DNA of 64,000 nucleotides from Hemileia vastatrix (lineage: Eukaryota > Basidiomycota > Pucciniomycetes > Pucciniales > Zaghouaniaceae), in the NCBI GenBank assembly GCA_030280995.1, contig JASXTE010000014.1:23217150-23281149 (forward strand). Reading direction: 5' to 3'. Shown here one piece after another: positions 21,913 to 46,036 of this stretch (within the stretch, counting starts at the first letter, position 1; each line of letters opens with the position of its first letter). The notes below the pieces were generated by a model. It was not told the origin of the DNA. It did no database searches and was given only the letters and a program-made list of their open reading frames with translations. Made by a program: the position numbers and the translations under genes.

Positions 21913-22850
21913 TGTCAGCCAGGCTACTAGGCTTATCCAGTAAAATAATTAATTATCTTACTGAGATGAAGCCACGCCTTTTTAATCCTATTAATAATTA
22001 ATTATTTATTGCTTAATTATGTATTACTTACAATTAACTAGCTAAGTACATTAAGTAATTTTAATAATTAATAAAAATAAATGTCCCATACATTTTTACT
22101 CCCTAACACCGTGCTCAATAATAAAGTTGAGAAAGGAATAAAAAATAGTATTAAAAATAAAATAAAATCTAAAAAAAATCAAATTCCTTTATTAAGAGAT
22201 TTAAATTTACGTTAAAACAACATTTTAAATCAAATGTTTTATACTAAGTGTGACAAACTAAGGGAACTCAAGTTTTATTTCAAATAAAAATGATACCTTT
22301 CATTGACGCACCATTTAGTATATCTTTTTATATTTCACATACTCTCTTTATTTAGTTTCTTCCTCTCACACCCTTTTATTAGGTAGTGTTAACTCCGTGT
22401 TTTTATCTCTCACATTTTGCCTATAAAAGGCCCTACATTTTTGTACTTTTCGAGTCATTCCATTACTTACTTATTAAAACATTTACTACACTTTAAATAT
22501 TTATTACTATTTCTTATTGTTTTAGTATTTACAAATATGTAATTCTAACTCATTAATTATAATAATATTTATAAATTTTCTACCTCTTATATTTGAGTAA
22601 AACTAATAAAAGATAGAAGTACGTACCCTAAACTTTGAGAATCCAAAAATCTCCTTGGTACTGCCATTGGACCGCCATTAAAAACCTTCTGGACATAAAA
22701 GACCCCTTGAAAATTGAGGCCCTTTCCAAATAGTCAACAGCGCATTGATATCTTGAAGCTGGAAAAAGAGGGACCATCAACAACGAGGTGCCAATAGGAT
22801 GAGTATATGACAAAGACAACAAACGTCATCAGTCACGTGACTTAATTTTT
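21913..22850 (+). repeat. Ty3-B 5' LTR
   Basis: 21913-22708 matches 29656-30450. The remaining 140 bp up to the candidate primer site lacks a match because the 3' LTR appears truncated. A TATA-like CCTATAAAAGG lies near 22420. The exact 3' boundary is uncertain. Confidence 0.65.
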
Positions 22851-23063: not shown

Positions 23064-23500
23064 CCTAGTTGACAAAGATAGAACTATATTTCTCTTAGTC
23101 CTAGAAGTGATATAAGAGTTAAATTAATTATATTATTTTTTTAATTATTTCAGTTGACTTCTGTCCTGATAATTAGAAATTTATATTATTGTTTAAGTTG
23201 ACAAATTATCCTGGAAGTTAAATTTAAAAATAATATAAATTAATTAAATTATATCAAATTATTTCAGTTGACAATAAAGTTCTAGTAATTAAAATTATTT
23301 CAGTTGACATTAAGTCCTGGTAATTAAATATCCTTCAGTTGATTTTAATCCTGATAATTATCAAAATTTAATTTGTTGATTAAAAATTAATTTTCTTCAG
23401 TTGATTTCTTTAATCCTGATTATAAAATTTAATTTGAATTAATAAAAATTTTGATTATTATTCCAGTTGATTTTTATCCTGAAGATTTTAAAAAAAATTT
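23064..23500 (+). repeat. Ty3-B leader repeat: CAGTTGAY - short gap - RTCCTGRTAATTA
   Basis: About eight sense-strand copies start near 23066, 23151, 23195, 23265, 23301, 23336, 23398 and 23464. In each, CAGTTGA(C/T) is followed after about 3-8 nt (longer in the first copy) by (G/A)TCCTG, usually then GTAATTA or ATAATTA. GAC tends to go with GTC and GAT with ATC, so a tiny stem is kept. The array lies in the untranslated leader just before the gag ATG at 23584. Confidence 0.65.
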
Positions 23501-29655: not shown

Positions 29656-30450
29656 TGTCAGCCAGGCTACTAGACTTATCCAGTAAAGTAATTAATTTTC
29701 TTACTGAGATGAAGCCACTCCTTTTTAATCCTATTAATAATTAATTATTTATTGCTTACTTATGTATTACTTACAATTAACTAGCTAAGTACATTAAGTA
29801 ATTTTAATAATTAATAAAAATAAATTTCCCATACATTTTTGCTCCCTAAAACTGTGCTCAATAATACGGTTGAGAAAGGAATAAAAATAGTATTAAAAAT
29901 CTAATAAAATCTAAAAAAAATCAAATTCCTTTATAAAGAGATTTAAATTTACATTAAAACAACATTTTAAATCAAATGTTTTATACTAAGTGTGAAAAAC
30001 TAAGGGAACTCAAGGTTTATTTCAAATAAAAATGATACCTTTTATTGACGCACCATTTAGTATATCTTTTTATATTTCACATACTCTCTTTATTTAGTTT
30101 TTTCCTCTTACACCCTTTTATTAGGTGGTGTTAACTCCGTGTTTTTATCTCTCACATTTTGCCTATAAAAGGCCCTCCATTTTTGTACTTTTTGACTCAT
30201 TCCATTACTTACTTATTAAAACATTGACTACACTTAAAATATTTATTACTATTTCTTATTGTTTTAGTATTTACAAATATGTAGTTCTAACTCATTAATT
30301 ATAATAATATTTATAAGTTTTCTACCTCTTATATTTGAGTAAAACCAATAAGAGATAGAAGTATGTACCCTAAACTTTGAGAATCCAAAAATCCCCTTGT
30401 TACCACCACTGGACCACCAGTAAAAAACTTCTAGACATAAAAGACCCCTT
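29656..30450 (+). repeat. Ty3-B 3' LTR, truncated
   Basis: It begins TGTCAGCCAGG directly after the purine tract GTGAGGGAG (29647-29655). It matches 21913-22708, then breaks off into satellite at about 30451, so the last 140 bp and the target duplication are missing. Confidence 0.8.
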
Positions 30451-33831: not shown

Positions 33832-34968
33832 TGTGGTAGCCTAAAGTTTAGTACGGCACCTAAATATGTAAATGGAGTTATTACGGCGTGCAAGATTGGC
33901 GTTATTATTTTTTATATATAAAAGGGTTTTATTTAATTTATTTGAGTTTTAAATATGAAGAAATTGGTCACGAGCGAATGCCTACACGAAAACAATTTAT
34001 TTTACGGAGAAAACTTATTTTTACGGCCTGAAAAATTTATAAGTATTAAGTCGAGTCACTCAAGAACCTTGGGAAATTTTCCCAGAATTTTTACTATTTT
34101 TCTTATATTTTTAAATGAATTTTAAAGTTTTATAGAAATATTTACGTTTTCAGAAATTACTTAACTTCGATGAATTTTCACGGGGTAATTAGAGCTGCGC
34201 AGACTACGAAAATTAGTTTGGTATGTAAAGGGGAAGTAGCTCTATTATGTGTAATTTTTCTAGATTTTTTATTATAGTTTTAAGGTTCTAAATTGAGTCC
34301 GGAAGTCCGGACGGACTCCGTTTCGACTCCGTACGGACTCCGCTTTGACTCCGTACGGACTCCGTACGGGCTCCGGATTGACTCTGGAAGAGCTCTGGAG
34401 GGGAAAACTTAGGCACGTGACTAGGAATACTTAAGCGCTTCTCAAACTCGAAATTGAGAGGGGGACAGATCATACAGCTTAATCATTAACCACCACGGTC
34501 TCATTTTTTATTACTCAACAAATTAAATAAGTTACAATACCCTTATAACATTTATTATTTTTACATAACATTTTAGAAATACAATTCAACAATTTAAATC
34601 ACACTTCATATAGGGTATCTTTAGAAAGGTCTTCATCGCTGGGACTTGATTATTGCTGTCTCATATAAATTTAAATTATTATAAAAACATAAAAGTCAAT
34701 CTTTTCAGATCTTTCACTGGTACACCTTAATTGTTGTTATCAGTATTTCTTTTATCAACAGCCACTTTCTTTAAATCTCAATAAGCGTTAATTATTTTAG
34801 AGTTTCATTATTTTCATCAATAAGATCCAAGTAGATTGGTTAGCTTAGTGATTTAGAATTCCCATTTTGTTATTTTTTTATTGGAAGGACGGGGTTTTCG
34901 GCTAAATCCACATATCTCCTCCGGATTCTGCTTACAGCAAGGCGACTGTAAGAGTTTACCTTACCATA
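33832..34968 (+). repeat. Ty3-A 5' LTR (1137 bp)
   Basis: Termini are TGTGGTA and TACCATA, an imperfect 7-bp inverted pair, ending in TA rather than the usual CA. A TATA-like TTATATATAAAAGGG lies near 33910-33925. It contains the GC-rich minisatellite listed separately. Confidence 0.93.
34290..34385 (+). repeat. LTR-internal minisatellite, unit about 11 bp (CGGACTCCGTA)
   Basis: Roughly eight diverged copies of GGACTCCG(T/C)(A/T) stand next to each other in the LTR and again at 45358-45453 in the 3' LTR. Units are rich in CpG and partly self-complementary. The old solo LTR has a decayed counterpart at 3575-3645. Confidence 0.75.
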
Positions 34969-34970
34969 GT

Positions 34971-34988
34971 TGGCGCCCAACGTGGGGT
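34971..34988 (+). other. Ty3-A primer-binding site, tRNA-Lys type
   Basis: TGGCGCCCAACGTGGGG starts 2 nt after the LTR. This is the well-known site complementary to the 3' end of tRNA-Lys1,2. Complementarity to the host's own tRNA-Lys should be checked in its genome. Confidence 0.88.
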
Positions 34989-35038
34989 TCGATTTCTCTA
35001 GCTTTCTTTAAAGACTTACTTGGATCAAGAACGTTATT

Positions 35039-35101
35039 AGCCTGCAAGAGGCTTATTTTCTGGAACTCTAATTGGATTTTTGTTATTGGCCTGCAAGAGG
35101 C
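35039..35101 (+). repeat. Two leader hairpins of Ty3-A (AGCCT-GCAAG-AGGCT)
   Basis: 35039-35053 folds as AGCCT / AGGCT around GCAAG, followed by TATTTTCTGG. 35088-35102 repeats GGCCTGCAAGAGGC. They recall the CTC…CAA…GAG-TTAAACTGG module of the 3' half but with a shorter loop and altered tail. They sit between the primer site and the gag ATG, where packaging signals usually lie. Confidence 0.55.
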
Positions 35102-35144
35102 TTGTTATTTTATCGATTGTTAACGCTTTTCATTACTTATTGGG

Positions 35145-37751
35145 ATGTCTTCTTCTGCTGTTGCTTCTGGATCTTCTAACCCTCTTACTCCCTCAGTTAG
35201 AATTGTTTCTTGGGATGGCCCAAAGTTTGATGGGGAGGAGGTTAAATGGTTCATTAGCAGGTATGAAGCTGCTGCTGCTGTTGATGGTGCTTCCCATGTG
35301 GATATGGTGAAGCAAGTTAGATTTTTTATTGCCGATAGGGAGGTGGAAAAAGAGGTTATTGCTATGCAGGCATTCAAGGACAAGGATTGGGTTAAACTTT
35401 CTAAAGCTATGGTTGATAGATGGGGTGTTAGGTTTACTATGATGGACCTCAATAAAATTGTTGGAGACTGGCAAGCAAAAGGTGGAGTTTCTTCTATGGC
35501 TGACTTCAAAAAGCTCTGTGTTCAGTTTGATGAAGTGGTGGAATATCTCATACTGGTGGACGAGTTAGTGCATGAGAACCAAGCAAAAGATTTGTTTTGG
35601 TCAGCATGCAGCAGGGATATTCGTATGGACGTCTTGAAGGATCTTTCAAGAAAAGATTTGATGAAGGAACTGCCTAATGGTGAGCAGAAACTGCCGGCTC
35701 TGGAGGTTATCAAAGAGAACATTCAGGCCCGTCTCAAGTTATTGGCGTTGGACAAATATCAAGAGTCATGCACTCAATATGTTAGCAAGGTTAGCGAAGT
35801 TTTGGCCGAAAATAACGATATTATGGTCAAAGCCCAGGAGGCCAAGAAGGCACAAATGGGATTACCGGCTGCTAAAGTTGAGGGCAATGTAGACAATAAG
35901 ATGGTCGATCACTTGGCCGATTTAACGAAACAATTAAAAATATTTGTCCAAGAGACTCAAAAGGCCAACAAGGCCCCAATCGCTTCTTCGTCGACGTCGA
36001 CTTCTTATCAGTCCAGAGGTTATGAACGTCGAAATTATAATGGCAATAATAACGGTAACCGCTTCCCAGGCAATGGGAGAAATGGTGGGAATGGTAGTAA
36101 TTATAGAGGTGGCTATGATGAGCCAAAGGTGTGCTCCTATTGTAATAGGAGGGGTCATAGAGCAACAGTTTGTTTTGCTCTTGATAAGGATATGGATGCT
36201 GGGCGAGTTTTATTTGATGGTAAAGTTTATAAATTTCCTGATGGTTCGTTCATCAAGCCCAGTGATGGACAGTCTCCTTCTGATTTGGTCAGAAGAAGTT
36301 TAACGGCTGAAAGGAGAGCCAGATTTGAAGAGGTGACGGATGAAGATGTTAATGCCAAGGGTGGCAAAAATGGTAACGGTAATGGTGGAAAAGCTGACAA
36401 AGGTAAAGAGAAAGAGGTCAGTAAAGCCACATTTTCTACTTCTTTTGGTGGTTTAGAGCTGGCGACGGTTGCCCAGGTGGAGGGTAGCTGTATGGCTGGC
36501 GAATATGATGTTAATGCTGCTAGAAGAGCAGCTGCTACTAAGGCGAAAAGTAGCATTCAGAGCCAATTGAGGGCTAATCCTGGCAAGGCCAATAACAAAG
36601 TGAACCCTTACTCTAAGGACAAGATTTCTAGTGCTCAAACTGCCGCCAACAAATTGAACCCTTACTCTAAGGACGAATTATATAAAATGCAGAAGGGGAT
36701 TGCTGACATGGGGCCCCCTAGTTATGGCAAGTTTGATTTAAATGGTGAGCCTATGCCAGAGGATGATTCGGATTCTGAGGAGGACGTACCGTTGGCGTCT
36801 CTACCCAGACCAAGTTTTAGCGGTCCCATCCCAATGGAGGGTGTAAGAAGGACTAGCGATGGATCAGGATTAGTGCAAGAAGCTGGTGACGGAGTTAGGG
36901 TTATAGAAAGTGAAGATGTTATTATGGGGGGTGAAGATGGCTCGGTTGGACCTCAAGAGGTACCCAGGGCCAAGGTTGTTAAATCAAAGGTCCAGTATGA
37001 GCGGCCAGTAGTTTCTGGTCAAGCTAATGCGATGGACGCAGTTTTGAATAGGGTGAATCAACTTCAGATTCCCTTATCTTTGGGGGAGTTATTTACGATT
37101 AGTCCGGCGCTTGCTGAAAAGCAAAAGAAGCATTTGACGAGGCGTCGGGTTTCCACTGGAGAGGTGGAATATATTTGTGAAAATGTTGAAAAGTTTGGGG
37201 AAGATGTAGATACACATTTTTCCGCTCCCCTGGGTTACCTGGTGGTAACTCTTAATGGTAAAGAAGTAAAGGCCTTGGTCGATTCAGGGTCTCAAATTAA
37301 TTTAATTTCATTGGAGCAAGCAACAAGTATAGGCTTGCCAATTAAAAGTGGGACTGGGGGAAACCTCAGAGGTATTGGAGGTCATGCAACAGAGCTGATG
37401 GGTACAGCTGAGCATGTCAGGTTAGGCATTGGTGGATCTGTTGGTAAGGTTCACTTTTATGTGGCCAGAGGAGCAGTCAAAACTGTTCTTGGTGGCCCTT
37501 TTTTGATGGATTTTGAGGCCAGGATAGGGTATCAAGCTGGCATGGGGATTAGTTTGGAGATCACTGGTGAAGATATGCGGAGGTTACATATGCGGTTAGC
37601 ACCTCCTGGAGATGAAGGTTGGGAAACACGGCCAGGGATTACTACTCTGTGCCAGTGTTGTGTTTGCACCAAGAAGCGGCATATAAAACGGACGGCTTCT
37701 GGTGAATTATGTTTGTTGGAAAGGGATGAATGCCCTCATTTTTTGGGGTAG
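35145..37751 (+). CDS. Ty3-A ORF1: Gag capsid, CCHC knuckle and aspartic protease (868 aa)
   Basis: ATG 35145 is the first in-frame start after the leader. Residues 1-290 are a helical capsid-like region (WDGPKFDGEEVKWFISRYEA near the N terminus). Residues 300-325 are Gly/Asn/Arg-rich, and residues 330-343 are a canonical knuckle CSYCNRRGHRATVC. Acidic linkers follow. Residues near 713 hold the protease motif ALVDSGSQINLI, so protease lies at the end of ORF1 rather than in Pol. The ORF is uninterrupted, and stop TAG 37749 overlaps the start of ORF2. The product should assemble virus-like particles, bind element RNA and cleave the polyproteins. Opposite-strand open frames here are shadows. Confidence 0.9.
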   Translation: MSSSAVASGSSNPLTPSVRIVSWDGPKFDGEEVKWFISRYEAAAAVDGASHVDMVKQVRFFIADREVEKEVIAMQAFKDKDWVKLSKAMVDRWGVRFTMMDLNKIVGDWQAKGGVSSMADFKKLCVQFDEVVEYLILVDELVHENQAKDLFWSACSRDIRMDVLKDLSRKDLMKELPNGEQKLPALEVIKENIQARLKLLALDKYQESCTQYVSKVSEVLAENNDIMVKAQEAKKAQMGLPAAKVEGNVDNKMVDHLADLTKQLKIFVQETQKANKAPIASSSTSTSYQSRGYERRNYNGNNNGNRFPGNGRNGGNGSNYRGGYDEPKVCSYCNRRGHRATVCFALDKDMDAGRVLFDGKVYKFPDGSFIKPSDGQSPSDLVRRSLTAERRARFEEVTDEDVNAKGGKNGNGNGGKADKGKEKEVSKATFSTSFGGLELATVAQVEGSCMAGEYDVNAARRAAATKAKSSIQSQLRANPGKANNKVNPYSKDKISSAQTAANKLNPYSKDELYKMQKGIADMGPPSYGKFDLNGEPMPEDDSDSEEDVPLASLPRPSFSGPIPMEGVRRTSDGSGLVQEAGDGVRVIESEDVIMGGEDGSVGPQEVPRAKVVKSKVQYERPVVSGQANAMDAVLNRVNQLQIPLSLGELFTISPALAEKQKKHLTRRRVSTGEVEYICENVEKFGEDVDTHFSAPLGYLVVTLNGKEVKALVDSGSQINLISLEQATSIGLPIKSGTGGNLRGIGGHATELMGTAEHVRLGIGGSVGKVHFYVARGAVKTVLGGPFLMDFEARIGYQAGMGISLEITGEDMRRLHMRLAPPGDEGWETRPGITTLCQCCVCTKKRHIKRTASGELCLLERDECPHFLG

Positions 37752-40700
37752 CAGGGGCTGATCACTCTAATGTTGTAATCTCTCCTCAGGATGAGATCCC
37801 GGATTGCAATAGGTCAGCTCACTTGGAGATAATTCAAGTGGATTCTCAATTATTTTCTGTTAATATTACTTTGGAGTGCAAATACGTTTTGGACTTTTCT
37901 ATATGTTTATTGGATTTACCCTGTTTTTCTATTAAATTTAAAAATGGTAAAAAAGGCAAGATGGGCCAAATTAGGTTGGATAAAAATTGGAAGGGTATGT
38001 TTATGGACCTCCAGCAAGAGGTTAAACTGCAAGTATCTCCTTCTATTATGGACCTCCAGCAAGAGGTTAAACTGCAAGTATCTCCTTCTATTATGGACCT
38101 CCAGCAAGAGGTTAAACTGCAATTATCTCCTTCTATCACGGACCTCCAGCAAGAGGGTAAACTGCGAAAATCTCATCAAAATCAAATAAAAAATCTCGGT
38201 ATAATTAAAACACAAAAAAATAATTTTTGTGAAAATTCAATTCCGGTTCTCCAGCAAGAGGTTAAACTGCCAACTTTCTTTACGGGTGATTTACTGTTGG
38301 ATAAGGGAAGAAAAGGTGTTGGAAAATCTGTTTATAAATTAGACGAGGGAAAGGAGAAAAGGGTAAAATTTAAAAACGAAATAAAATATTTTTCTAATTT
38401 TTCTTATTCTGATTCTGGCGATGAAGAAGATTCATTTGATGAAAGTTTTAATGGCGATGTTTTACCTCAAGTTAATTTAGATGTGGACGCAGCCAAATAT
38501 AAGAAAGTAGCAAATAAAGTTAGACCTATTAATGAGCCGCTACCTGCTAAATTAAATCCACCTTTGAGAAGACCAAGGTTATCAAGAGATCCTTATGAAA
38601 GTCCCTTGGTAAAGAATCCGCCTGAATTTTCTGAGACGTCAAGAATCACTTTTGAGAGACTGGGTGTTGTTAATTTTGGACCTGATGGTTGGTTGTCTGG
38701 AGAAGAGAAGAAGTTGTTGTTGGATGTGATGGTCAAGCGAGAGAAGGCCATTGCTTTTGAAGAAGAGGAGAGGGGTGTGTTGAAGCATTCCTATGGGGAG
38801 CCTTACAAGATTCCTGTGGTATGTCATGAACCGTGGCAGCAGAAACCGATTCCTATTCCGGCTGCATTAAAAGAAGCTTATATCGAAGTTGTCAGAGAAC
38901 GGATACGCACTGGACTGTATGAGCAATCAACGTCAAGTTATTCTAGTCCGGTATTTTGTATCAAGAAACCGAATGGCAAGCTTAGAGTAGTTCATGATCT
39001 TAGGGAATTAAATAGGGTTACAATAAAGGATGCTGGGATACCGCCTAGTGCTGAGGAGTTTGTTGAAGCGTTTGCAGGGAGAGTGTGTTATGGTTTGGGA
39101 GATATTATGGGTGGATATGATGAGAGAGAGTTACATCCGGACTCAAGGCCACTCACTACATTCGATACGCCACTTGGACGTTTACAGTTAACAAGATTAC
39201 CTCAAGGAGCAACAAATTCGGTTGCAGTTTATCAAGCTCAGATGGCTTGGATCCTTCAAGATGAAATTCCACAATATGCTGGAATCTTTATAGATGATGG
39301 AGGAATTAAGGGACCAACAACCGACTATGATAACCAGGTGTTGGAAGAGAATCCCGGGATACGCAAATTCATTTGGGAGTTTGCAATTACTTTAGAAAGA
39401 ATCTTGTTTCGAATTGAAGAGGCTGGCTTAACTATTTCAGGTTCAAAATTTTCATGTTGTGTGCCAGCCTTAGAAATATTAGGCCATGTGGTATGTAGAG
39501 AGGGTAGGATTATGTCCAAGAAGAAAGTTAACAAAATTCAGTCCTGGCCAAGACCCAAGAATACGACCGAAGTTAGAGGGTTTTTAGGCGTTTGCGTATA
39601 TGTTAGAATGTTTATCAAGGACTTTTCTTCATTGGAAGCTCCATTGAGACGGTTAACGAGAAAGGATGCAGACTGGGAGTGGGATGAAGAGTGTGAGAAG
39701 GCGTTTGTGAAGTTGAAGGAGGTTGTAGGGAAGGATTTAGTCCTGCACAAGTTGGATTATGGAAAAGAAGCTGGCAGAATTTATTTAGCAGTCGATTCAA
39801 GTCAGGTTGCAGCTGGGGCGGTTTTGTCTCAGATGGATAAAGCTGGTTACATCAGGCCAGTTAGGTATGAATCTGTAGTATTTACTGAGGTCGAATCAAG
39901 ATATTCTCAACCAAAATTGGAATTATGTGGTGTGGCGAAAATACTGAAGAAACTTCAGCATATTTTGTGGGGGCAACATTTTGAGTTGCAAGTGGATGCG
40001 AAATCGTTAATCCAGATGATTAATTCCCCAAGTTTACCGAACGCACCCATGACGAGATGGGTAGCTTTTATCCAACATTTTTCGTTTGATTTAGTTCATA
40101 AGCCTGGCAAAACTTTTACTATGCCAGATGGTTTATCAAGGAGACCACCCACTGAAGAAGATTCAGACTCAGAAGAGTTCGATGAAGATATACCTATTAT
40201 CAAAGCCAGCACTAAAGGAGCTGAAGACTTTCCATACCTCCCCCATGAGGTTAAACTGGCAGGACTATTGTGTTTAGATTATGATGATGATGACCTCCAC
40301 CAAGAGGATAAACTGGAAAATAGTTTTTATGTTAATAAAGGTGTTGGAAAAGGTGTAGATAAATTCGGCAGAGAGGAGGTAGAAGAAGATGTGGTGTATG
40401 TAGAGGAAGATGGATTGGTAGTGTGGGATAGTAGTAAATTAAGGAATGGTGTATATGTTGGAGAATTAGAGAATTTAAATAAAAAGGTGGATAAAGAGAA
40501 AGAGGTATTTTCAAATACGGTTTTCGAAGGATCCAAAGGTTCGGAAGAAAAACGTCGACATAGCTCGATTAAAGATTTATTTAGGGGTCAACGATTATTG
40601 GCTCATTCATGTGCAGGTGATATTGGTGATAGAGAAGTCCCTATTGATGTTATATTAATCGATTTTCAAGATGAAGTCTGGGGTCAGACTGGTTTTTATT

Positions 40701-41974
40701 TTTTGTTAGTCAAATATTTGTTGACTTTAGAGAGGCCAGAAGATTGTGAAGACGATGAATGGGTGGCTATCAAGAGGAAGTCATCTACGTTTTACCTATC
40801 TGGTCGACGTTTAATGAGGAGGAGGTATCCAAATCCTCAAGTAGTTATAACTCAACAGAAGGGGCAAGAATTAGTTTTGAAATCACTGCATGAAGATCTC
40901 GGGCATAGAGGCGTTGGAGAAACGTTTAGAAGAATTTCTGATCGATTTTGGTGGCCTGGCATGAAGATGGCTGTTAAACAGTGGGTTAAGTCATGCGAAG
41001 AATGTCAAAGACGAAGTTATTTAAGGCCAAAAGAACCTGGACGCGCGACCGGTGAATATACGCTCTTTGGGAGAGTTAGTTTAGATGCCGTTCATATAAA
41101 AGAGGGACGGTATAAATATTTAATTGTGGCCAGAGATGATTTATCTGGTTGGGTAGAGGCAGCGCCTCTTATTAATTTAACTGCCAAAAATGTGGCAGAA
41201 TTTTTTTTAAATAATTGGGTATATAGGTATGGGGTGATGAAGTTGGTAACGGTAGATGGAGGTTCTGAATTTGGGACAGAGTTTAAAGAGGCCGTATTGA
41301 AAGTTGGATCAAAGGTTAGGGTAGCAACCCCATATTATCCTGAAGCTGAAGGCATGGTTGAAAGAGGGCATCAAGTTATTAAGGATGCTTTAGTTAAAAT
41401 GTGTGGGACAAGTGCTGAAAAGTGGAGGCACTATTTACCTTTAGTTTTATTTGCTGATCGAATCACTGCCAAAAGGACGACCGGATTTTCACCTTATGAA
41501 CTTGTTTTTGGACAGAAAGCAGTTTTACCGGTTGATTTAGAAGCTGAATCATATCTTGGAGTTGACTGGGACACGGTCAAAACTACTGAAGAATTATTGT
41601 GTGCAAGAATGATGCAGCTAGAAAAGAAAGAAGAATATTTAGAAAAGGCATATTCGCGGATGATGAAGATCCGAAATCAATCAGTCAGATATTGGGATGA
41701 GCGGTTGGCACATCGATTAAGGAAACCTTTGAACCCAGGAGATATGGTCCTGGTGTATAATAGGAGTTTGGAAAGTCAGTGGGGAAAGATGTTTGCAGAT
41801 AGGTGGAATGGACCGTATAAAATCAAGGAGCAAGTTTCCGGCGGTTCATATGTGCTAGAAGAGTTGGATGGAGTAGTATTAAAGAAGAGGGTAGCGGCCG
41901 ATCAAGTGAAACGGTTCTATCCTAGAGGCACCAGGAGTGCCGAAGTCTTCCTCCGCAATGAGGATAAACTATGA
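37730..41974 (+). CDS. Ty3-A ORF2: reverse transcriptase, RNase H, integrase (1414 aa)
   Basis: This frame is -1 relative to ORF1 and overlaps it by 22 bp. Residues 93-145 are four 15-residue repeats containing LQQEVKL. RT follows, with RLPQGATNSVAVYQAQMAWI and the catalytic FIDD at residues 520-523, an arrangement seen in a basidiomycete Ty3 group. The RNase H Asp is residue 689 (AVDSSQ). The integrase zinc finger starts at H1054 (CEECQRRS later). The core has D1119, D1176 and E1211, giving exact D-D-35-E spacing. The C terminus ends …RFYPRGTRSAEVFLRNEDKL with no chromodomain seen. The last codons and the TGA stop lie in a stem-loop repeat. All key residues are present. It is probably made by -1 frameshifting, although internal initiation at ATG 37730 is possible. 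Confidence 0.92.
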   Translation: MPSFFGVAGADHSNVVISPQDEIPDCNRSAHLEIIQVDSQLFSVNITLECKYVLDFSICLLDLPCFSIKFKNGKKGKMGQIRLDKNWKGMFMDLQQEVKLQVSPSIMDLQQEVKLQVSPSIMDLQQEVKLQLSPSITDLQQEGKLRKSHQNQIKNLGIIKTQKNNFCENSIPVLQQEVKLPTFFTGDLLLDKGRKGVGKSVYKLDEGKEKRVKFKNEIKYFSNFSYSDSGDEEDSFDESFNGDVLPQVNLDVDAAKYKKVANKVRPINEPLPAKLNPPLRRPRLSRDPYESPLVKNPPEFSETSRITFERLGVVNFGPDGWLSGEEKKLLLDVMVKREKAIAFEEEERGVLKHSYGEPYKIPVVCHEPWQQKPIPIPAALKEAYIEVVRERIRTGLYEQSTSSYSSPVFCIKKPNGKLRVVHDLRELNRVTIKDAGIPPSAEEFVEAFAGRVCYGLGDIMGGYDERELHPDSRPLTTFDTPLGRLQLTRLPQGATNSVAVYQAQMAWILQDEIPQYAGIFIDDGGIKGPTTDYDNQVLEENPGIRKFIWEFAITLERILFRIEEAGLTISGSKFSCCVPALEILGHVVCREGRIMSKKKVNKIQSWPRPKNTTEVRGFLGVCVYVRMFIKDFSSLEAPLRRLTRKDADWEWDEECEKAFVKLKEVVGKDLVLHKLDYGKEAGRIYLAVDSSQVAAGAVLSQMDKAGYIRPVRYESVVFTEVESRYSQPKLELCGVAKILKKLQHILWGQHFELQVDAKSLIQMINSPSLPNAPMTRWVAFIQHFSFDLVHKPGKTFTMPDGLSRRPPTEEDSDSEEFDEDIPIIKASTKGAEDFPYLPHEVKLAGLLCLDYDDDDLHQEDKLENSFYVNKGVGKGVDKFGREEVEEDVVYVEEDGLVVWDSSKLRNGVYVGELENLNKKVDKEKEVFSNTVFEGSKGSEEKRRHSSIKDLFRGQRLLAHSCAGDIGDREVPIDVILIDFQDEVWGQTGFYFLLVKYLLTLERPEDCEDDEWVAIKRKSSTFYLSGRRLMRRRYPNPQVVITQQKGQELVLKSLHEDLGHRGVGETFRRISDRFWWPGMKMAVKQWVKSCEECQRRSYLRPKEPGRATGEYTLFGRVSLDAVHIKEGRYKYLIVARDDLSGWVEAAPLINLTAKNVAEFFLNNWVYRYGVMKLVTVDGGSEFGTEFKEAVLKVGSKVRVATPYYPEAEGMVERGHQVIKDALVKMCGTSAEKWRHYLPLVLFADRITAKRTTGFSPYELVFGQKAVLPVDLEAESYLGVDWDTVKTTEELLCARMMQLEKKEEYLEKAYSRMMKIRNQSVRYWDERLAHRLRKPLNPGDMVLVYNRSLESQWGKMFADRWNGPYKIKEQVSGGSYVLEELDGVVLKKRVAADQVKRFYPRGTRSAEVFLRNEDKL
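37739..37745 (+). promoter_or_regulatory. Candidate -1 frameshift site T_TTT_TTG
   Basis: In the ORF1 frame the codons read CAT TTT TTG GGG TAG, so the heptamer T TTT TTG fits X XXY YYZ and lies one codon before the stop. Slipping back one base continues directly into the ORF2 frame. A downstream pseudoknot was not modelled. Confidence 0.65.
38008..38164 (+). repeat. Four 45-bp coding repeats carrying the stem-loop module
   Basis: Copies at 38008, 38053, 38098 and 38143 each contain CCTC-CAGCAA-GAGG then (T/G)TAAACTG, encoding LQQE(V/G)KL. Spacing is exactly 45 bp. A fifth single copy is at 38248 (CTC-CAGCAA-GAGG). Two more in pol are at 40237 and 40294. All are in the same codon phase. Confidence 0.85.
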
Positions 41975-42301
41975 AACTTCTTAAATATTATGGATCCTCC
42001 GCAATGAGGATAAACTATGACATTTTTCAAATTTTATGGATTCCTCCGCAATGAGGATAAACTATGAAACTTCTTAAATTTTATGGATTCCTCCGCAATG
42101 AGGATAAACTATGATATCAATGAAACTTTATGGATTCCTCCGCAATGAGGATAAACTATGAAATTTCTTAAATTTTATCAACTCCGAAATGAGGATAAAC
42201 TACAATTTTAATGACTTTTATTAAATTTATTCCTCCGCAATGAGGATAAACTATGATGTTTATAAAAATTTTATGGATTCCTCCGCAACGAGTATAAACT
42301 A
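41950..42301 (+). repeat. Stem-loop array I: eight tandem modules across the pol stop and 3' region
   Basis: CCTCCGCAATGAGGATAAAC recurs with starts at 41950, 41996, 42043, 42090, 42137, 42232 and 42280, plus ACTC-CGAAAT-GAGG at 42181. Spacing is 46-51 bp, and the intervening A+T-rich segments are themselves related (…TTTTATGGATT). The first copy supplies the last Pol codons. Each module folds as CTC/GAG with a 6-nt loop, followed by ATAAAC. Confidence 0.88.
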
Positions 42302-42626
42302 TCTTCTTATTTTTATCAAAAATACTTTACTATCATTACACTGCATATGGGCGACGAAACTGTGATGAAACATAACAAAATTTGAGAAAACCTTCATTGA
42401 AAATTTTCAAAATTTAAAATTCTTAAAATATGGGTGAAGATAGTGTTGGAAAAATTTTAAAATTTATTGGAAGAAGTGTTCACAGGGGAACCTTCTTAAT
42501 TAAATATTGGCAAGTGTGGGGGTGATTGATGGGCTGGCTGCTCTATACACAATTACCCCATAATGTTCGTTTCCAAAATTTTCCCTGTTTCTAGTTGAAT
42601 CCTGGCTTTGTCTTTTAATTTTAGGA
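42302..42626 (+). other. Ty3-A 3' non-coding segment
   Basis: Non-coding sequence with no repeat module between the two arrays. No ORF of note. Confidence 0.5.
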
Positions 42627-42773
42627 AGTCCACTAAGACTATAAACTGGAACGAATCAAGAGACACCGCTCTCAACGCCGGATTCAAGATTTTTTTTATT
42701 TTGTTTTTGATTTTTTTTATGTAAAATTGTGATTTCTTTTCTTTAATATATATTATGAATTATTGTAAAGGTG

Positions 42774-42836
42774 ATGCTCACTGGTGGTCTCTAATCATTT
42801 TTATAAATTGGAGGGAGCCCACCCAGTGATCATCAT
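42774..42836 (+). repeat. Hairpin in the Ty3-A 3' non-coding region
   Basis: GATGCTCACTGGTGGTCTC and the inverted GAGGGAGCCCACCCAGTGATC flank an A+T-rich loop, giving a long imperfect stem. It is separate from the short module family. Confidence 0.6.
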
Positions 42837-42903
42837 TATAAAAATTATCTTCTAAAAACTTTCATTTATTTTCTTTTCTTTTCAATTTCTTAAAATTGTG
42901 TAA

Positions 42904-42929
42904 CCACATCAAGTTGCACTTGGATGTGG
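42904..42929 (+). repeat. Compact hairpin CCACATCAAG / CTTGGATGTGG
   Basis: A stem of about 10 bp with a TTGCA-type loop and one bulge. It lies in the same 3' non-coding region, in the gap between module copies. Confidence 0.55.
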
Positions 42930-43104
42930 GTATGATGTCGAGGGTACGGCTCATCAAATGGCCGGGGGGCATCTTTTAAAATTTTATTTTAAAATTTTTT
43001 TTTTTAGTACTTTTTTTATCTTTCTTTTCACATTCATTTATCTTTCTTTAAAATTAAATTTTAACTTTTATTTCAAAACTATCTTTTCTAAAATCTTTTA
43101 TTTT

Positions 43105-43149
43105 AAATTTAAAAAAAAAAATAAAATAAAAAAAAATAAAATAAAATAA

Positions 43150-43180
<31 letters not shown>

Positions 43181-43217
43181 TAAAATAAAAATAAAATAAA
43201 TAAAAAAAAATAATAAT

Positions 43218-43255
<38 letters not shown>
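43105..43255. repeat. (AAAAT)n / poly-A microsatellite
   Basis: AAAATAAAAT-type units followed by a run of about 36 A near 43220-43255. It lies inside the Ty3-A 3' non-coding region. Confidence 0.85.
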
Positions 43256-43260
<5 letters not shown>

Positions 43261-44229
43261 TAAAATTTATTAATTAAATCAAAATCATTATTATAATTCT
43301 TAGTTTTATTTTTCAGTCTTCATTCTTTTAGTTTTATTCATTTAGTTTATACAGGAAACAGGGTCTAGGGGAACTCAATACCTTGGGATTTTACTTCAAG
43401 ATATCTGTTAGTCCTCCAAGACTTTAAACTGGCTACTGTTCAAGACGTTCTTTAAGGTTTTTTTTTACACGTATTTTGGATCTGTTAGTCCTCCAAGACT
43501 TTAAACTGGCTACTTCTCAAGACTTTCCTTAAGGTTTTATACGAATTTTGGAGCTGTTAGTCCTCCAAGACTTTAAACTGGCTAATTTTCAAGACTTTCA
43601 TTAAAGATTTTATATTGGAGCTGTTAGTCCTTCAAGACTTTAAACTGAATTTCAAGGATGATTAAGATTTTATGGATATTTTTGGAGACGGATTTTTTTT
43701 ATATAAATCAAATGTTAGGTCCACCAAGACCTTAAACTGGAGTGTTATCAAATGTTAGGTCCACCAAGACCTTAAACTGGACTGTTATCAAACTGTTGGG
43801 TCCACCATGACCTTAAACTGGATTTCTTATCGATTAAATGTTTGGTCCACCATGACTTTAAACTGGTAGTTCATTCATTGTTTAGTCCACTATGACTTTA
43901 AACTGGAAAATTAATATCTGCAGGATAATTCAACATTCATTGGACCACTATGGCCTTATACTGGATTACTTGTCGATCAAATGTTTGGTCCACTATGACA
44001 TTAAACTGGATTATCAAATTTATTCAATCTTTGGTCAAGCCTAGGCCTTACTTAGGAATATATCAAGATATTTATGCACTTAAACGATCTTTGGTCCACC
44101 AAGACCATAAACTGGCAATCGATTATATGTTTGGTCTGCCAAGACTTTAAATTAGAATGTCAATCTTGTTTGGATAACTCAATTCAATCTTTTAATTTAT
44201 CACTGTCCACTAAGACTCTAAACTGGTTA

Positions 44230-44899
44230 TTCAATTATTTCTGGAATTGGGTGCTGATAATCTTTAGGAGGTTAAAATTTTAGGTGATGATGATGCTAAA
44301 GAAAGCATAATGGTTAATTAGGTGGAATTTGTGGCGCTTTAACATGGTCTAAAGTTAATATTATTATTGGAAGCCTGGCAAAAGTATTTTATGGGTTTGC
44401 TGTATAGCAAAGTTTGAAAATTGTGATGAAGGAATCAGAAGTTAGGATGGTAGTTGGATTTTAGGGAATGATTTTTTTTAGTGCCTCATAGTTAGGCCAT
44501 TTTTTTTTTGGTGTGAAGCTTGGAGGACCTTATGGCGAGATTGGAATCATAGAATTCGGCTCAGTGGGGGGCCCTATGAGGTTGGAATCAGGAGTATTCG
44601 GCTCATAGGAAGATCCACTCTCTCAATGCTGTGACAAGAAGGAAGACTGGTTAATGGGAGTCTGAAGGGATTCAAACCTTGCTCTCAGTAGTGGAATCAT
44701 CACAAGATTTATATTATTTTATTTTATGTTATATCAAGCCAGAGAAGAAGAAAGAACGTTTTTTATTATAAAGATTTAAAAGAAGACCAGCTAAAACAAA
44801 TTTATCAAATTACTTTATCGGAAAAGATAATTCTTTTGGAATTGCTCAACCACTTATGCAAAGTTTTACGAATGGGGACATTCTCGATTGGAGGGAGGA
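44230..44899 (+). other. Ty3-A distal 3' non-coding region and polypurine tract
   Basis: There is no ORF. Two related direct repeats carry GGTTGGAATCA/GATTGGAATCA followed by ATTCGGCTCA (about 44540-44610). The purine tract GGAGGGAGGA at 44890-44899 abuts the 3' LTR. Confidence 0.7.
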
Positions 44900-46036
44900 T
44901 GTGGTAGCCTAAAGTTTAGTACGGCACCTAAATATGTAAATGGAGTTATTACGGCGTGCAAGATTGGCGTTATTATTTTTTATATATAAAAGGGTTTTAT
45001 TTAATTTATTTGAGTTTTAAATATGAAGAAATTGGTCACGAGCGAATGCCTACACGAAAACAATTTATTTTACGGAGAAAACTTATTTTTACGGTCTGAA
45101 AAATTTATAAGTATTAAGTCGAGTCACTCAAGAACCTTGGGAAATTTTCCCAGAATTTTTACTATTTTTCTTATATTTTTAAATGAATTTTAAAGTTTTA
45201 TAGAAATATTTACGTTTTCAGAAATTACTTAACTTCGATGAATTTTCACGGGGTAATTAGAGCTGCGCAGACTACGAAAATTAGTTTGGTATGTAAAGGG
45301 GAAGTAGCTCTATTATGTGTAATTTTTCTAGATTTTTTATTATAGTTTTAAGGTTCTAAATTGAGTCCGGAAGTCCGGACGGACTCCGTTTCGACTCCGT
45401 ACGGACTCCGCTTTGACTCCGTACGGACTCCGTACGGGCTCCGGATTGACTCTGGAAGAGCTCTGGAGGGGAAAACTTAGGCACGTGACTAGGAATACTT
45501 AAGCGCTTCTCAAACTCGAAATTGAGAGGGGGACAGATCATACAGCTTAATCATTAACCACCACGGTCTCATTTTTTATTACTCAACAAATTAAATAAGT
45601 TACAATACCCTTATAACATTTATTATTTTTACATAACATTTTAGAAATACAATTCAACAATTTAAATCACACTTCATATAGGGTATCTTTAGAAAGGTCT
45701 TCATCGCTGGGACTTGATTATTGCTGTCTCATATAAATTTAAATTATTATAAAAACATAAAAGTCAATCTTTTCAGATCTTTCACTGGTACACCTTAATT
45801 GTTGTTATCAGTATTTCTTTTATCAACAGCCACTTTCTTTAAATCTCAATAAGCGTTAATTATTTTAGAGTTTCATTATTTTCATCAATAAGATCCAAGT
45901 AGATTGGTTAGCTTAGTGATTTAGAATTCCCATTTTGTTATTTTTTTATTGGAAGGACGGGGTTTTCAGCTAAATCCACATATCTCCTCCGGATTCTGCT
46001 TACAGCAAGGCGACTGTAAGAGTTTACCTTACCATA
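44900..46036 (+). repeat. Ty3-A 3' LTR (1137 bp)
   Basis: Same length and nearly the same sequence as 33832-34968. It is followed directly by ACGT (46037-46040), the copy of the target duplication. Confidence 0.93.

What the first reader, a model, noticed from the sequence alone, without database searches (positions are those of the whole stretch)
38008..44229. About 31 copies of a stem-loop module in Ty3-A whose two arms covary
Seen directly: a repeated module of 4-nt arm, exactly 6-nt loop, 4-nt arm, then (T/A)TAAACTGG, always on the sense strand. By my count there are 12 CCTC/GAGG copies (plus three with only CTC/GAG), 6 AGTC/GACT, 4 GGTC/GACC, 4 GTC/GAC copies with a weak or mismatched outer pair, and 2 broken copies. 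The inner T-A and C-G pairs are constant. The outer two positions swap C-G, G-C and A-T together. The loop stays C-N-Y-M-A-W. Compensatory change with a fixed loop length and tail is the signature of a selected RNA (or single-stranded DNA) structure. Inference: a multivalent binding site for Gag or a host factor, serving packaging, dimerisation, localisation or RNA protection. I know of no described equivalent in a Ty3 element.
Basis: partly seen in the sequence, partly recalled or inferred. Interest (0 to 1): 0.92.

Follow-up and report, generated by a model that had tools for sequence, protein, structure and literature searches.

The report
Repeated RNA pseudoknots in a retrotransposon
A jumping genetic element carries about 30 copies of one tiny RNA fold whose paired letters change together, and related elements in the same genome carry it too, which points to an unrecognised RNA signal that probably binds protein.

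Summary
In detail: 30 clear sense-strand copies (38008-44226) plus one wreck (44033) of a 23-nt module in a Ty3-type element whose LTRs differ at 2 of 1137 positions. Loop positions 7-9 match tail positions 21-23 (CCA/TGG, GCA/TGC, TCA/TGA, wobble CTA/TGG), so 21 of 22 copies outside one array can fold as a small H-type pseudoknot. The 8 copies at the pol stop lack this second stem.

The host genome (748 Mb) holds 112,736 matches to a pattern that leaves the variable pairs free (reversed control: 34). Elements with pol 60-79% identical carry the module. There stem 2, fixed beforehand, appears in 28 of 45 modules outside the pol-stop class after collapsing similar copies (1 of 10,000 shuffles reaches this). 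Two tree-based tests of stem 2 fail: all 30 window copies counted equally, and 92 pooled cores.

Rare Leu codons in pol modules and low divergence against adjacent spacers point to selection on the nucleic acid. Function is inferred: multivalent protein-binding sites on the genomic RNA, most likely for packaging or assembly; an RNA-stability shield is the chief rival.

The parts
33832..34968 (+). 5' LTR of the element (BLAST extent)
   Evidence: 1137-bp direct repeat, 2 differences
44900..46036 (+). 3' LTR of the element (BLAST extent)
35145..37751 (+). gag-protease ORF, 868 aa; no module inside
37730..41974 (+). pol ORF, 1414 aa (RT, RNase H, integrase), overlapping gag in the -1 frame; holds 8 modules
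38008..38030 (+). module, in pol, S1 4/4, S2 3/3 (GCA/TGC)
38053..38075 (+). module, in pol, S1 4/4, S2 3/3
38098..38120 (+). module, in pol, S1 4/4, S2 3/3
38143..38165 (+). module, in pol, S1 4/4, S2 3/3
38248..38270 (+). module, in pol, S1 4/4 (outer pair U-G), S2 3/3
40237..40259 (+). module, in pol between RNase H and integrase, S1 4/4, S2 3/3 (CCA/TGG)
40294..40316 (+). module, in pol between RNase H and integrase, S1 4/4, S2 3/3
41950..41972 (+). module at the pol stop, S1 4/4, S2 1/3
41996..42018 (+). module, 3' UTR, S1 4/4, S2 1/3
42043..42065 (+). module, 3' UTR, S1 4/4, S2 1/3
42090..42112 (+). module, 3' UTR, S1 4/4, S2 1/3
42137..42159 (+). module, 3' UTR, S1 4/4, S2 1/3
42181..42203 (+). 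module, 3' UTR, S1 3/4, S2 1/3
42232..42254 (+). module, 3' UTR, S1 4/4, S2 1/3
42280..42302 (+). module, 3' UTR, S1 3/4, S2 1/3
42627..42649 (+). module, 3' UTR, S1 4/4 (AGTC/GACT), S2 3/3 with wobble
43410..43432 (+). module, 3' UTR, S1 4/4, S2 3/3
43487..43509 (+). module, 3' UTR, S1 4/4, S2 3/3
43559..43581 (+). module, 3' UTR, S1 4/4, S2 3/3
43626..43648 (+). module, 3' UTR, S1 4/4, S2 3/3 by the TCA/TGA swap
43718..43740 (+). module, 3' UTR, S1 4/4 (GGTC/GACC), S2 3/3
43758..43780 (+). module, 3' UTR, S1 4/4, S2 3/3
43799..43821 (+). module, 3' UTR, S1 4/4, S2 3/3
43844..43866 (+). module, 3' UTR, S1 4/4 (outer pair G-U), S2 3/3
43884..43906 (+). module, 3' UTR, S1 4/4, S2 3/3 with wobble
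43942..43964 (+). module, 3' UTR, S1 3/4, S2 3/3 with wobble
43987..44009 (+). module, 3' UTR, S1 3/4, S2 3/3 with wobble
44033..44057 (+). decayed module, left out of all counts
44093..44115 (+). module, 3' UTR, S1 4/4, S2 3/3
44133..44155 (+). module, 3' UTR, S1 4/4 (outer pair G-U), S2 2/3 here; the open S2 pair is C-G in 18 of the 20 sampled sister loci
44204..44226 (+). module, 3' UTR, S1 3/4, S2 3/3 with wobble

Best explanation
The module is a cis-acting RNA structure of the element's genomic RNA. The sense RNA folds most modules into a small H-type pseudoknot: stem 1 (4 bp), then three loop bases pairing with the last three bases of the tail (stem 2), with an A-rich UAAAC strand lying across stem 1. 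Thirty modules sit downstream of the gag stop codon, at joints of pol and along the 3' UTR. I think they act together as multivalent, sequence-specific protein-binding sites that mark and condense full-length RNA for Gag during assembly, in the manner of dispersed packaging signals. Shown: a non-random, sense-strand RNA module with covarying stem 1, carried by several families. Supported with stated failures: stem 2. Inferred: the strand across stem 1, protein binding, Gag as the partner, packaging as the purpose.
For: Stem 1: 93.8% of cells paired on 20 distinct cores, 0 of 500 shuffles as high; 0 of 5000 tree simulations. Stem 2 in the window: 88.3% of cells paired, 0 of 500 shuffles as high, at most 37.5% for slid registers; first of 1035 three-pair helices by pairing without the pol-stop array, fourth with all 30 copies; family-wise 0 of 300 without that array, 2 of 500 twice and 30 of 5000 (19 copies, 2 of the 8 array copies kept, repeated cores dropped); within stem-1 class 21 of 22 against 17.5, 78 of 5000. 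Stem 2 out of sample, columns fixed beforehand, pol-stop class left out: 70 of 113 modules in 15 loci against 56.0 when loops are dealt anew within locus and stem-1 class, 0 of 5000; 28 of 45 after collapsing copies alike at about 75% or more, against 19.1, 1 of 10,000, five neighbouring registers 0 of 45 each. Descriptor (S1 at least 3, S2 3, NTAAAC exact): 20 hits in the element on +, none elsewhere on either strand. Nucleotide selection: CTC for Leu in 8 of 8 pol modules against 4 of 118 other Leu codons in pol; in 20 sister loci substitutions 68/1591 in cores against 413/1675 in spacers of the pol-stop array. Families with pol 60-79% identical carry modules. Genome: 112,736 matches, reversed control 34. 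[quoted passage not shown]
Against: With all 30 window copies counted equally stem 2 is not significant family-wise (81 of 300), and its pairing level alone is not unusual on the tree (0.70 and 0.48 of 2000 runs as high; jointly with the covariation statistic 0). On 92 pooled cores of other families the tree null reaches the stem-2 helix in 357 of 1000 runs and pair 7/23 alone in 59 of 1000, and no branch there shows a matched change at pair 7/23. Measures that count changed pairs or pair types do not exceed shuffles. The pol-stop class lacks stem 2 in the window (8 of 8) and elsewhere (14 of 92 cores, the class being defined by A at positions 8 and 22). 18 of 92 cores have C opposite A at pair 7/23. 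Cores in the main 3' UTR array differ by 4.3%, hardly less than module-free 3' UTR (5.0%), and pol-start cores by 7.9%, more than the rest of pol (2.0%). Hairpins alone are weak (-1.7 to -5.2 kcal/mol) and 11 of 12 tested are no better than shuffled sequence. No partner, expression or structure data. A role of the Ty1 pseudoknot in packaging could not be shown, and most of internal Ty3 is dispensable for retrotransposition when proteins come in trans (PMC4974528, passages).
Confidence: 0.4

Rival explanations
1. The same RNA folds serve as a stability shield: they recruit a host factor that keeps the long RNA downstream of the gag and pol stop codons from being treated as an aberrant 3' UTR and destroyed, as the Rous sarcoma virus stability element does.
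For: 30 of 30 modules lie downstream of the gag stop; an array starts at the pol stop codon; the 3' UTR is 2.9 kb. RSV has a stability element just after its gag stop (PMC5580461, abstract).
Against: Copies inside pol and at pol joints are not obviously needed for this; the RSV element is one 400-nt region, not a repeated fold. No decay data.
Confidence: 0.25
2. Plain 4-bp hairpin with a conserved single-stranded loop and tail bound by a protein; loop-tail complementarity is a by-product of shared history.
For: The pol-stop class keeps stem 1 and the UAAAC strand without stem 2; the tree null on pooled cores is not beaten for stem 2 and no matched branch change is seen at pair 7/23 there; all 30 window copies together do not pass.
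Against: plain hairpins are weak; it leaves unexplained why tail letter 23 follows loop letter 7 (of 92 cores: C with TGG 22, G with TGC 12, T with TGA 14; C with TGC 0, G with TGG 0).
Confidence: 0.2
3. A double-stranded DNA palindrome recognised by a dimeric protein (transcription factor, insulator).
For: The arms are inverted repeats; the LTR has palindromic 11-bp repeats of that kind.
Against: The conserved tail and loop are one-sided; copies are in sense orientation (30 of 30 here; 452 of 454 hits in 20 sister loci); arm swaps come as matched pairs; loop-tail complementarity has no meaning for duplex DNA; copies sit inside codons.
Confidence: 0.06
4. A repeated peptide motif (L-x-x-E-x-K-L) at polyprotein joints, for example protease sites, with the 3' UTR copies as relics.
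For: Eight copies share one frame and sit before RT, between RNase H and integrase and at the pol end.
Against: 22 of 30 copies are not in pol; most of those have GTC/GAC arms; Leu codon choice is not that of the rest of pol.
Confidence: 0.05
5. Neutral minisatellite growth of two or three variants.
For: Arrays with regular spacing and differing numbers of hits between sister loci (13-28 per 7.5 kb); core divergence in the main 3' UTR array is close to that of module-free 3' UTR.
Against: Cores outlast their own spacers; stem-1 covariation beats the tree null; modules are present in other families.
Confidence: 0.03

Closest known systems
Compact polerovirus frameshift pseudoknots (BWYV, PLRV, ScYLV)
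   Same: Compact fold; [quoted passage not shown] Here too a short stem 2 and an A-rich third strand. The stem and loop lengths of BWYV are recalled.
   Different: Those stimulate frameshifting at a slippery site; none of the 8 modules in pol has an X3Y3Z heptamer 3-11 nt upstream. Here there are tens of copies, most of them outside the ORF.
Dispersed packaging signals of MS2 and other small RNA viruses
   Same: Many copies of a fold with a shared recognition motif spread over the genomic RNA (PMC6281560, passages).
   Different: Those are stem-loops with evidence of coat-protein contact (MS2 abstracts in the listing); here a pseudoknot, a retroelement, and no binding data.
[quoted passage not shown]
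   Same: Lies downstream of the gag stop in a long RNA (PMC5580461, abstract).
   Different: One region, not a repeated module.
Ty1 and Ty3 pseudoknots of yeast
   Same: LTR-element RNAs with pseudoknots; Ty1 Gag binds the 5' pseudoknot of Ty1 RNA (PMC4974528, passages); two potential pseudoknots in Ty3 (PMC11381356, passages).
   Different: One or two unlike pseudoknots per RNA, not a repeated one; the yeast Ty3 3' UTR is 214 nt; a packaging role of the Ty1 pseudoknot could not be shown.
Tandem pseudoknots in plant-virus 3' UTRs (upstream pseudoknot domain; recalled)
   Same: Several pseudoknots in a 3' UTR.
   Different: There few and stacked end to end (recalled); here 40-1989 nt apart, start to start, and also inside the ORF.

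Membership tests
H-type RNA pseudoknot | Stem 1 with covariation | tested here: met
   not significant for the outer pair within a stem-1 class
H-type RNA pseudoknot | Hairpin loop pairs with sequence 3' of it, with covariation | tested here: inconclusive
   Met; not met with all 30 copies equal or in the tree null on 92 pooled cores; absent in the pol-stop class
H-type RNA pseudoknot | Fold seen by probing or structure | not testable with these tools
   no experiment available
-1 frameshift pseudoknot | Slippery heptamer a few nt upstream | tested here: not met
   0 of 8 modules in pol
Dispersed packaging signal | Many copies of a common fold and motif across the genomic RNA | tested here: met
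   30 copies, though none in the gag half; other families
Dispersed packaging signal | Binding by the capsid protein or Gag | not testable with these tools
   no binding data
RSV-type stability element | Located downstream of the gag stop | tested here: met
   30 of 30
RSV-type stability element | Protects RNA from decay | not testable with these tools
   no RNA data
Ty3-type (Metaviridae) LTR element | LTRs and domain order PR-RT-RNase H-IN | tested here: met
   the integrase core model scores 29.8 bits, under its cut-off of 32.6, the integrase zinc-binding model is well above its own
Known Rfam RNA family | Match at gathering score | tested here: not met
   0 matches in the window

The most novel reading that the evidence does not exclude
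A whole group of Ty3 elements organises its genomic RNA with roughly 10-30 copies of one sequence-specific mini-pseudoknot, kept across families and present in more than 100,000 pattern matches in one genome: a distributed cis-acting code for assembly or RNA fate, of a kind I found described for no LTR element.
Probability: 0.4. Interest if true: 0.9.

Novelty: new variant of a known kind. Interest (0 to 1): 0.78.

Why it matters
The cis signals by which Ty3-type elements choose and pack their own RNA are not defined even in yeast (PMC11381356, passages). An element with dozens of natural copies of one small fold, in many natural variants, makes that question testable by binding and probing alone. 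It would also be the first repeated pseudoknot array in a retroelement known to me, and a case where RNA structure appears to dictate rare codons inside pol. Seven literature searches aimed at this listed no such report; they cover open-licence full texts only, their lists were cut, and I read passages of two of the listed papers on Ty elements, the rest as listings.

Tried and rejected
Outer stem between sequence upstream of stem 1 and the tail: it folds in several copies of the pol-stop array but its register is not kept and some copies lack it. Helix at columns 15-17/21-23: high pairing, but weak pairs on a 3-nt loop. C-G swap of the inner U-A pair: 12 matches against 11 in the control. Frameshifting by the modules: no slippery site. 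Rfam: nothing at gathering score; two sub-threshold hits in the 3' UTR taken as chance. Relatives in viral contigs: none by pol; 52 single pattern matches taken as chance on my own estimate of about 100 expected, no tool result; two-module pattern 0 in viral contigs and 0 in genome contigs. A looser pseudoknot descriptor (one mismatch in NTAAAC, S1 4 of 4) also hits 3 places on + and 1 on - outside the element. Dropped rows: the hit at 43596, spacer of the 72-nt repeat; 44033 from all counts; 43942. Genome-wide counts of the mismatched stem-2 types could not be finished because the machine stayed busy; the paired type G-C gives 13,571 against control 0, which alone proves nothing. Genome counts are lower bounds by the tool's own note.
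Full report
What is there. The element spans 33832-46036. Its LTRs align over 1137 bp with two differences, so the insertion is young. ORF 1 (35145-37751) ends in a protease; ORF 2 (37730-41974) has RT, RNase H and integrase domains (the integrase core model is under its cut-off, the integrase zinc-binding model above), which is the Ty3 order. ORF 2 overlaps ORF 1 in the -1 frame. Thirty clear module copies lie at 38008-44226, all on the sense strand, none upstream of the gag stop; a wreck lies at 44033. Eight are inside pol in one frame, the last reaching the first base of the stop codon; 22 follow in a 3' UTR of 2.9 kb.

Stem 1. On 20 distinct cores, 93.8% of the stem-1 cells are paired and none of 500 shuffles is as high; the two measures that merely count changed pairs or pair types do not exceed shuffles. 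Because copies are related, I also moved each column's inferred changes at random over a tree of the copies: no run of 2000 reached the stem-1 pairing level, nor did any of the possible three-pair helices in 5000 runs on 19 copies, nor in 1000 runs on 92 cores of other families. Independent events are few: 1 branch with a matched change at the outer pair and 1 (or 4, with a tree from unpaired columns) at the second pair in the window, 1 and 1 in other families. Within a stem-1 class the outer pair does not covary significantly (39 of 45 paired, 37.3 expected, 1017 of 10,000). So the stem-1 signal rests mainly on the swaps between classes. The inner U-A and C-G pairs hardly vary: in the whole genome the C-G form of the U-A pair occurs 12 times, against 11 for the reversed control. 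Sequence as well as pairing seems fixed there.

Stem 2. A mutual-information scan put loop position 7 with tail position 23 among its top pairs. Loop positions 7-9 are complementary to tail positions 21-23: GCA/TGC in the first five copies, CCA/TGG in ten, TCA/TGA at 43626, CTA/TGG with a wobble in five. This would make an H-type pseudoknot: stem 1 of 4 bp, a 2-nt first loop, stem 2 of 3 bp, one joining base and a 6-nt third strand NTAAAC. Of 22 copies outside the pol-stop array 21 have three of three pairs, and the exception (44133) looks private, since 18 of 20 sister loci have C-G there. The exact descriptor finds 20 places in the element and none elsewhere in the window on either strand.

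Results against stem 2. The eight copies at the pol stop (41950-42302) have one of three pairs. With all 30 copies counted equally, stem 2 is not significant family-wise (81 of 300), and its pairing level alone is ordinary on the tree. Without them it is 0 of 300; with two or one of them kept, 2 of 500 each, and 30 of 5000 in the longer run with two kept. Leaving the array out was decided after seeing the data, so I looked for a test outside the window.

Other families. The host assembly (747.6 Mb, unnamed) answered after many busy replies. A pattern that leaves the outer stem-1 pairs and stem-2 positions 7, 8, 22 and 23 free has 112,736 exact matches, 34 for the reversed pattern (lower bounds by the tool's note). 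Twenty sister loci of the same family (L061-L080) gave 454 hits, 452 in sense; at least ten of these are spacer look-alikes. Fifteen loci chosen from other families (L081-L095, + strand) gave 132 modules and 92 distinct cores; in the 14 of 15 loci with a pol match, mean identity to the window's pol is 60-79%. By my reading of positions they sit at matching places: near the pol start, between RNase H and integrase, at the pol stop and in 3' UTR arrays. Loop letter and tail go together: C with TGG 22, TGC 0; G with TGC 12, TGG 0; T with TGA 14, TGG 1, TGC 1. Against it, C with TGA occurs 17 times and G with TGA 3 times; 13 of the 17 are followed by GG, against 0 of 14 T-TGA copies, so a stem 2 with a bulged A is possible there (post hoc). 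Dealing loops anew among modules of the same locus and stem-1 class gives 56.0 full stem 2 on average against 70 observed of 113, 0 of 5000 runs. With copies alike at about 75% or more over 45 nt collapsed to one, 28 of 45 against 19.1, 1 of 10,000, and five neighbouring registers score 0 of 45 each. Both tests leave out the pol-stop class. Against this, the tree-based null on all 92 cores is reached by some helix in 357 of 1000 runs and for pair 7/23 alone in 59 of 1000, and no branch shows a matched change at that pair.

Selection on nucleotides. Leu is CTC in 8 of 8 modules in pol, a codon used for 4 of 118 other Leu residues of that ORF; the second Leu is CTG in 7 of 8, against 7 of 118. 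Copies are related, so this is not a simple product of odds, but the letters have not drifted. Against the window, the 20 sister loci differ at 4.3% of core and 24.7% of spacer positions in the pol-stop array, 4.3 and 7.4% at 43401-44230, 7.9 and 13.3% at 38000-38275, 0.8 and 2.5% at 40230-40320. Two comparisons are less kind: module-free 3' UTR differs by 5.0%, close to the 4.3% of the cores, and the rest of pol by 2.0%, below the 7.9% of the pol-start cores. Repeats can be misaligned, which blurs these rates. The third strand of the pol-stop copies changed once in 522 positions. Between families, cores at four matched places are 88-96% identical where 60-nt flanks are 44-72%; detection by pattern favours conserved cores, so this is an upper bound.

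How it may work. Many equal copies, a sequence-specific inner part and loose spacing suggest a protein that reads each fold and gains from many copies. Gag is the obvious candidate: ORF 1 shows a CCHC zinc knuckle by eye, Ty1 Gag binds a pseudoknot in Ty1 RNA (PMC4974528, passages), and Ty3 localisation and packaging depend on UTRs and POL through signals not yet defined (PMC11381356, passages). Against it, a packaging role of the Ty1 pseudoknot could not be shown, and internal Ty3 sequence is dispensable for retrotransposition with proteins in trans. The placement of every copy downstream of the gag stop fits a stability shield about as well (PMC5580461, abstract). Packaging is my first choice at roughly 0.4, the shield at 0.25.

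Known relatives. By anatomy it resembles the compact polerovirus pseudoknots (PMC5009743, passages; lengths recalled), but the modules in pol have no slippery site. By use it may work like dispersed packaging signals (PMC6281560, passages); membership is untested because no binding is shown. A second Ty3-type element in the window has its own unrelated repeated hairpin in the 5' leader, so repeated small RNA folds may be a habit of these elements.

Noticed in passing
23151-23480: A second Ty3-type element (LTRs 21913-22708 and 29656-30450, 94.8% identical) has seven copies of another hairpin-like repeat in its 5' leader: CAG, TT, GAY, 4-7 nt, RTC, CTG; two of the seven are imperfect, and the inner third pair is C-G in some and T-A in others. 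The CAG could also be repeated splice sites.
   Followed up: partly
35040-35052 and 35089-35101: Two hairpins GCCTGCAAGAGGC in the 5' leader share the 8-mer GCAAGAGG with the first five pol modules; on the + strand the 8-mer occurs only once more in the window (12159). Possibly truncated modules near the usual packaging region; the leader as a whole folds no better than shuffled sequence.
   Followed up: partly
41950-42302: The pol-stop class keeps stem 1 and UAAAC but has A opposite A where stem 2 should be, in the window and in other families; its different role is unexplained.
   Followed up: partly
42740-42985: 3' UTR stretch folding better than shuffled sequence (-59.8 kcal/mol, z -3.4); no Rfam family at gathering score.
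   Followed up: no
37739-37751: Run of six T then G just before the gag stop, in the phase of a -1 slippery site; the 101 nt from 37735 fold no better than shuffled sequence.
   Followed up: partly
34306-34384 and 45374-45452: 11-bp tandem repeats, partly palindromic (TCCGTACGGAC type), in both LTRs; possibly a duplex-DNA protein site.
   Followed up: no
34971-34987: Primer-binding-site-like TGGCGCCC... just after the 5' LTR, of the type recalled for lysine tRNA.
   Followed up: no
window-wide: Long AT-rich tracts made of degenerate 11-bp units such as AAAACCTCACC.
   Followed up: no
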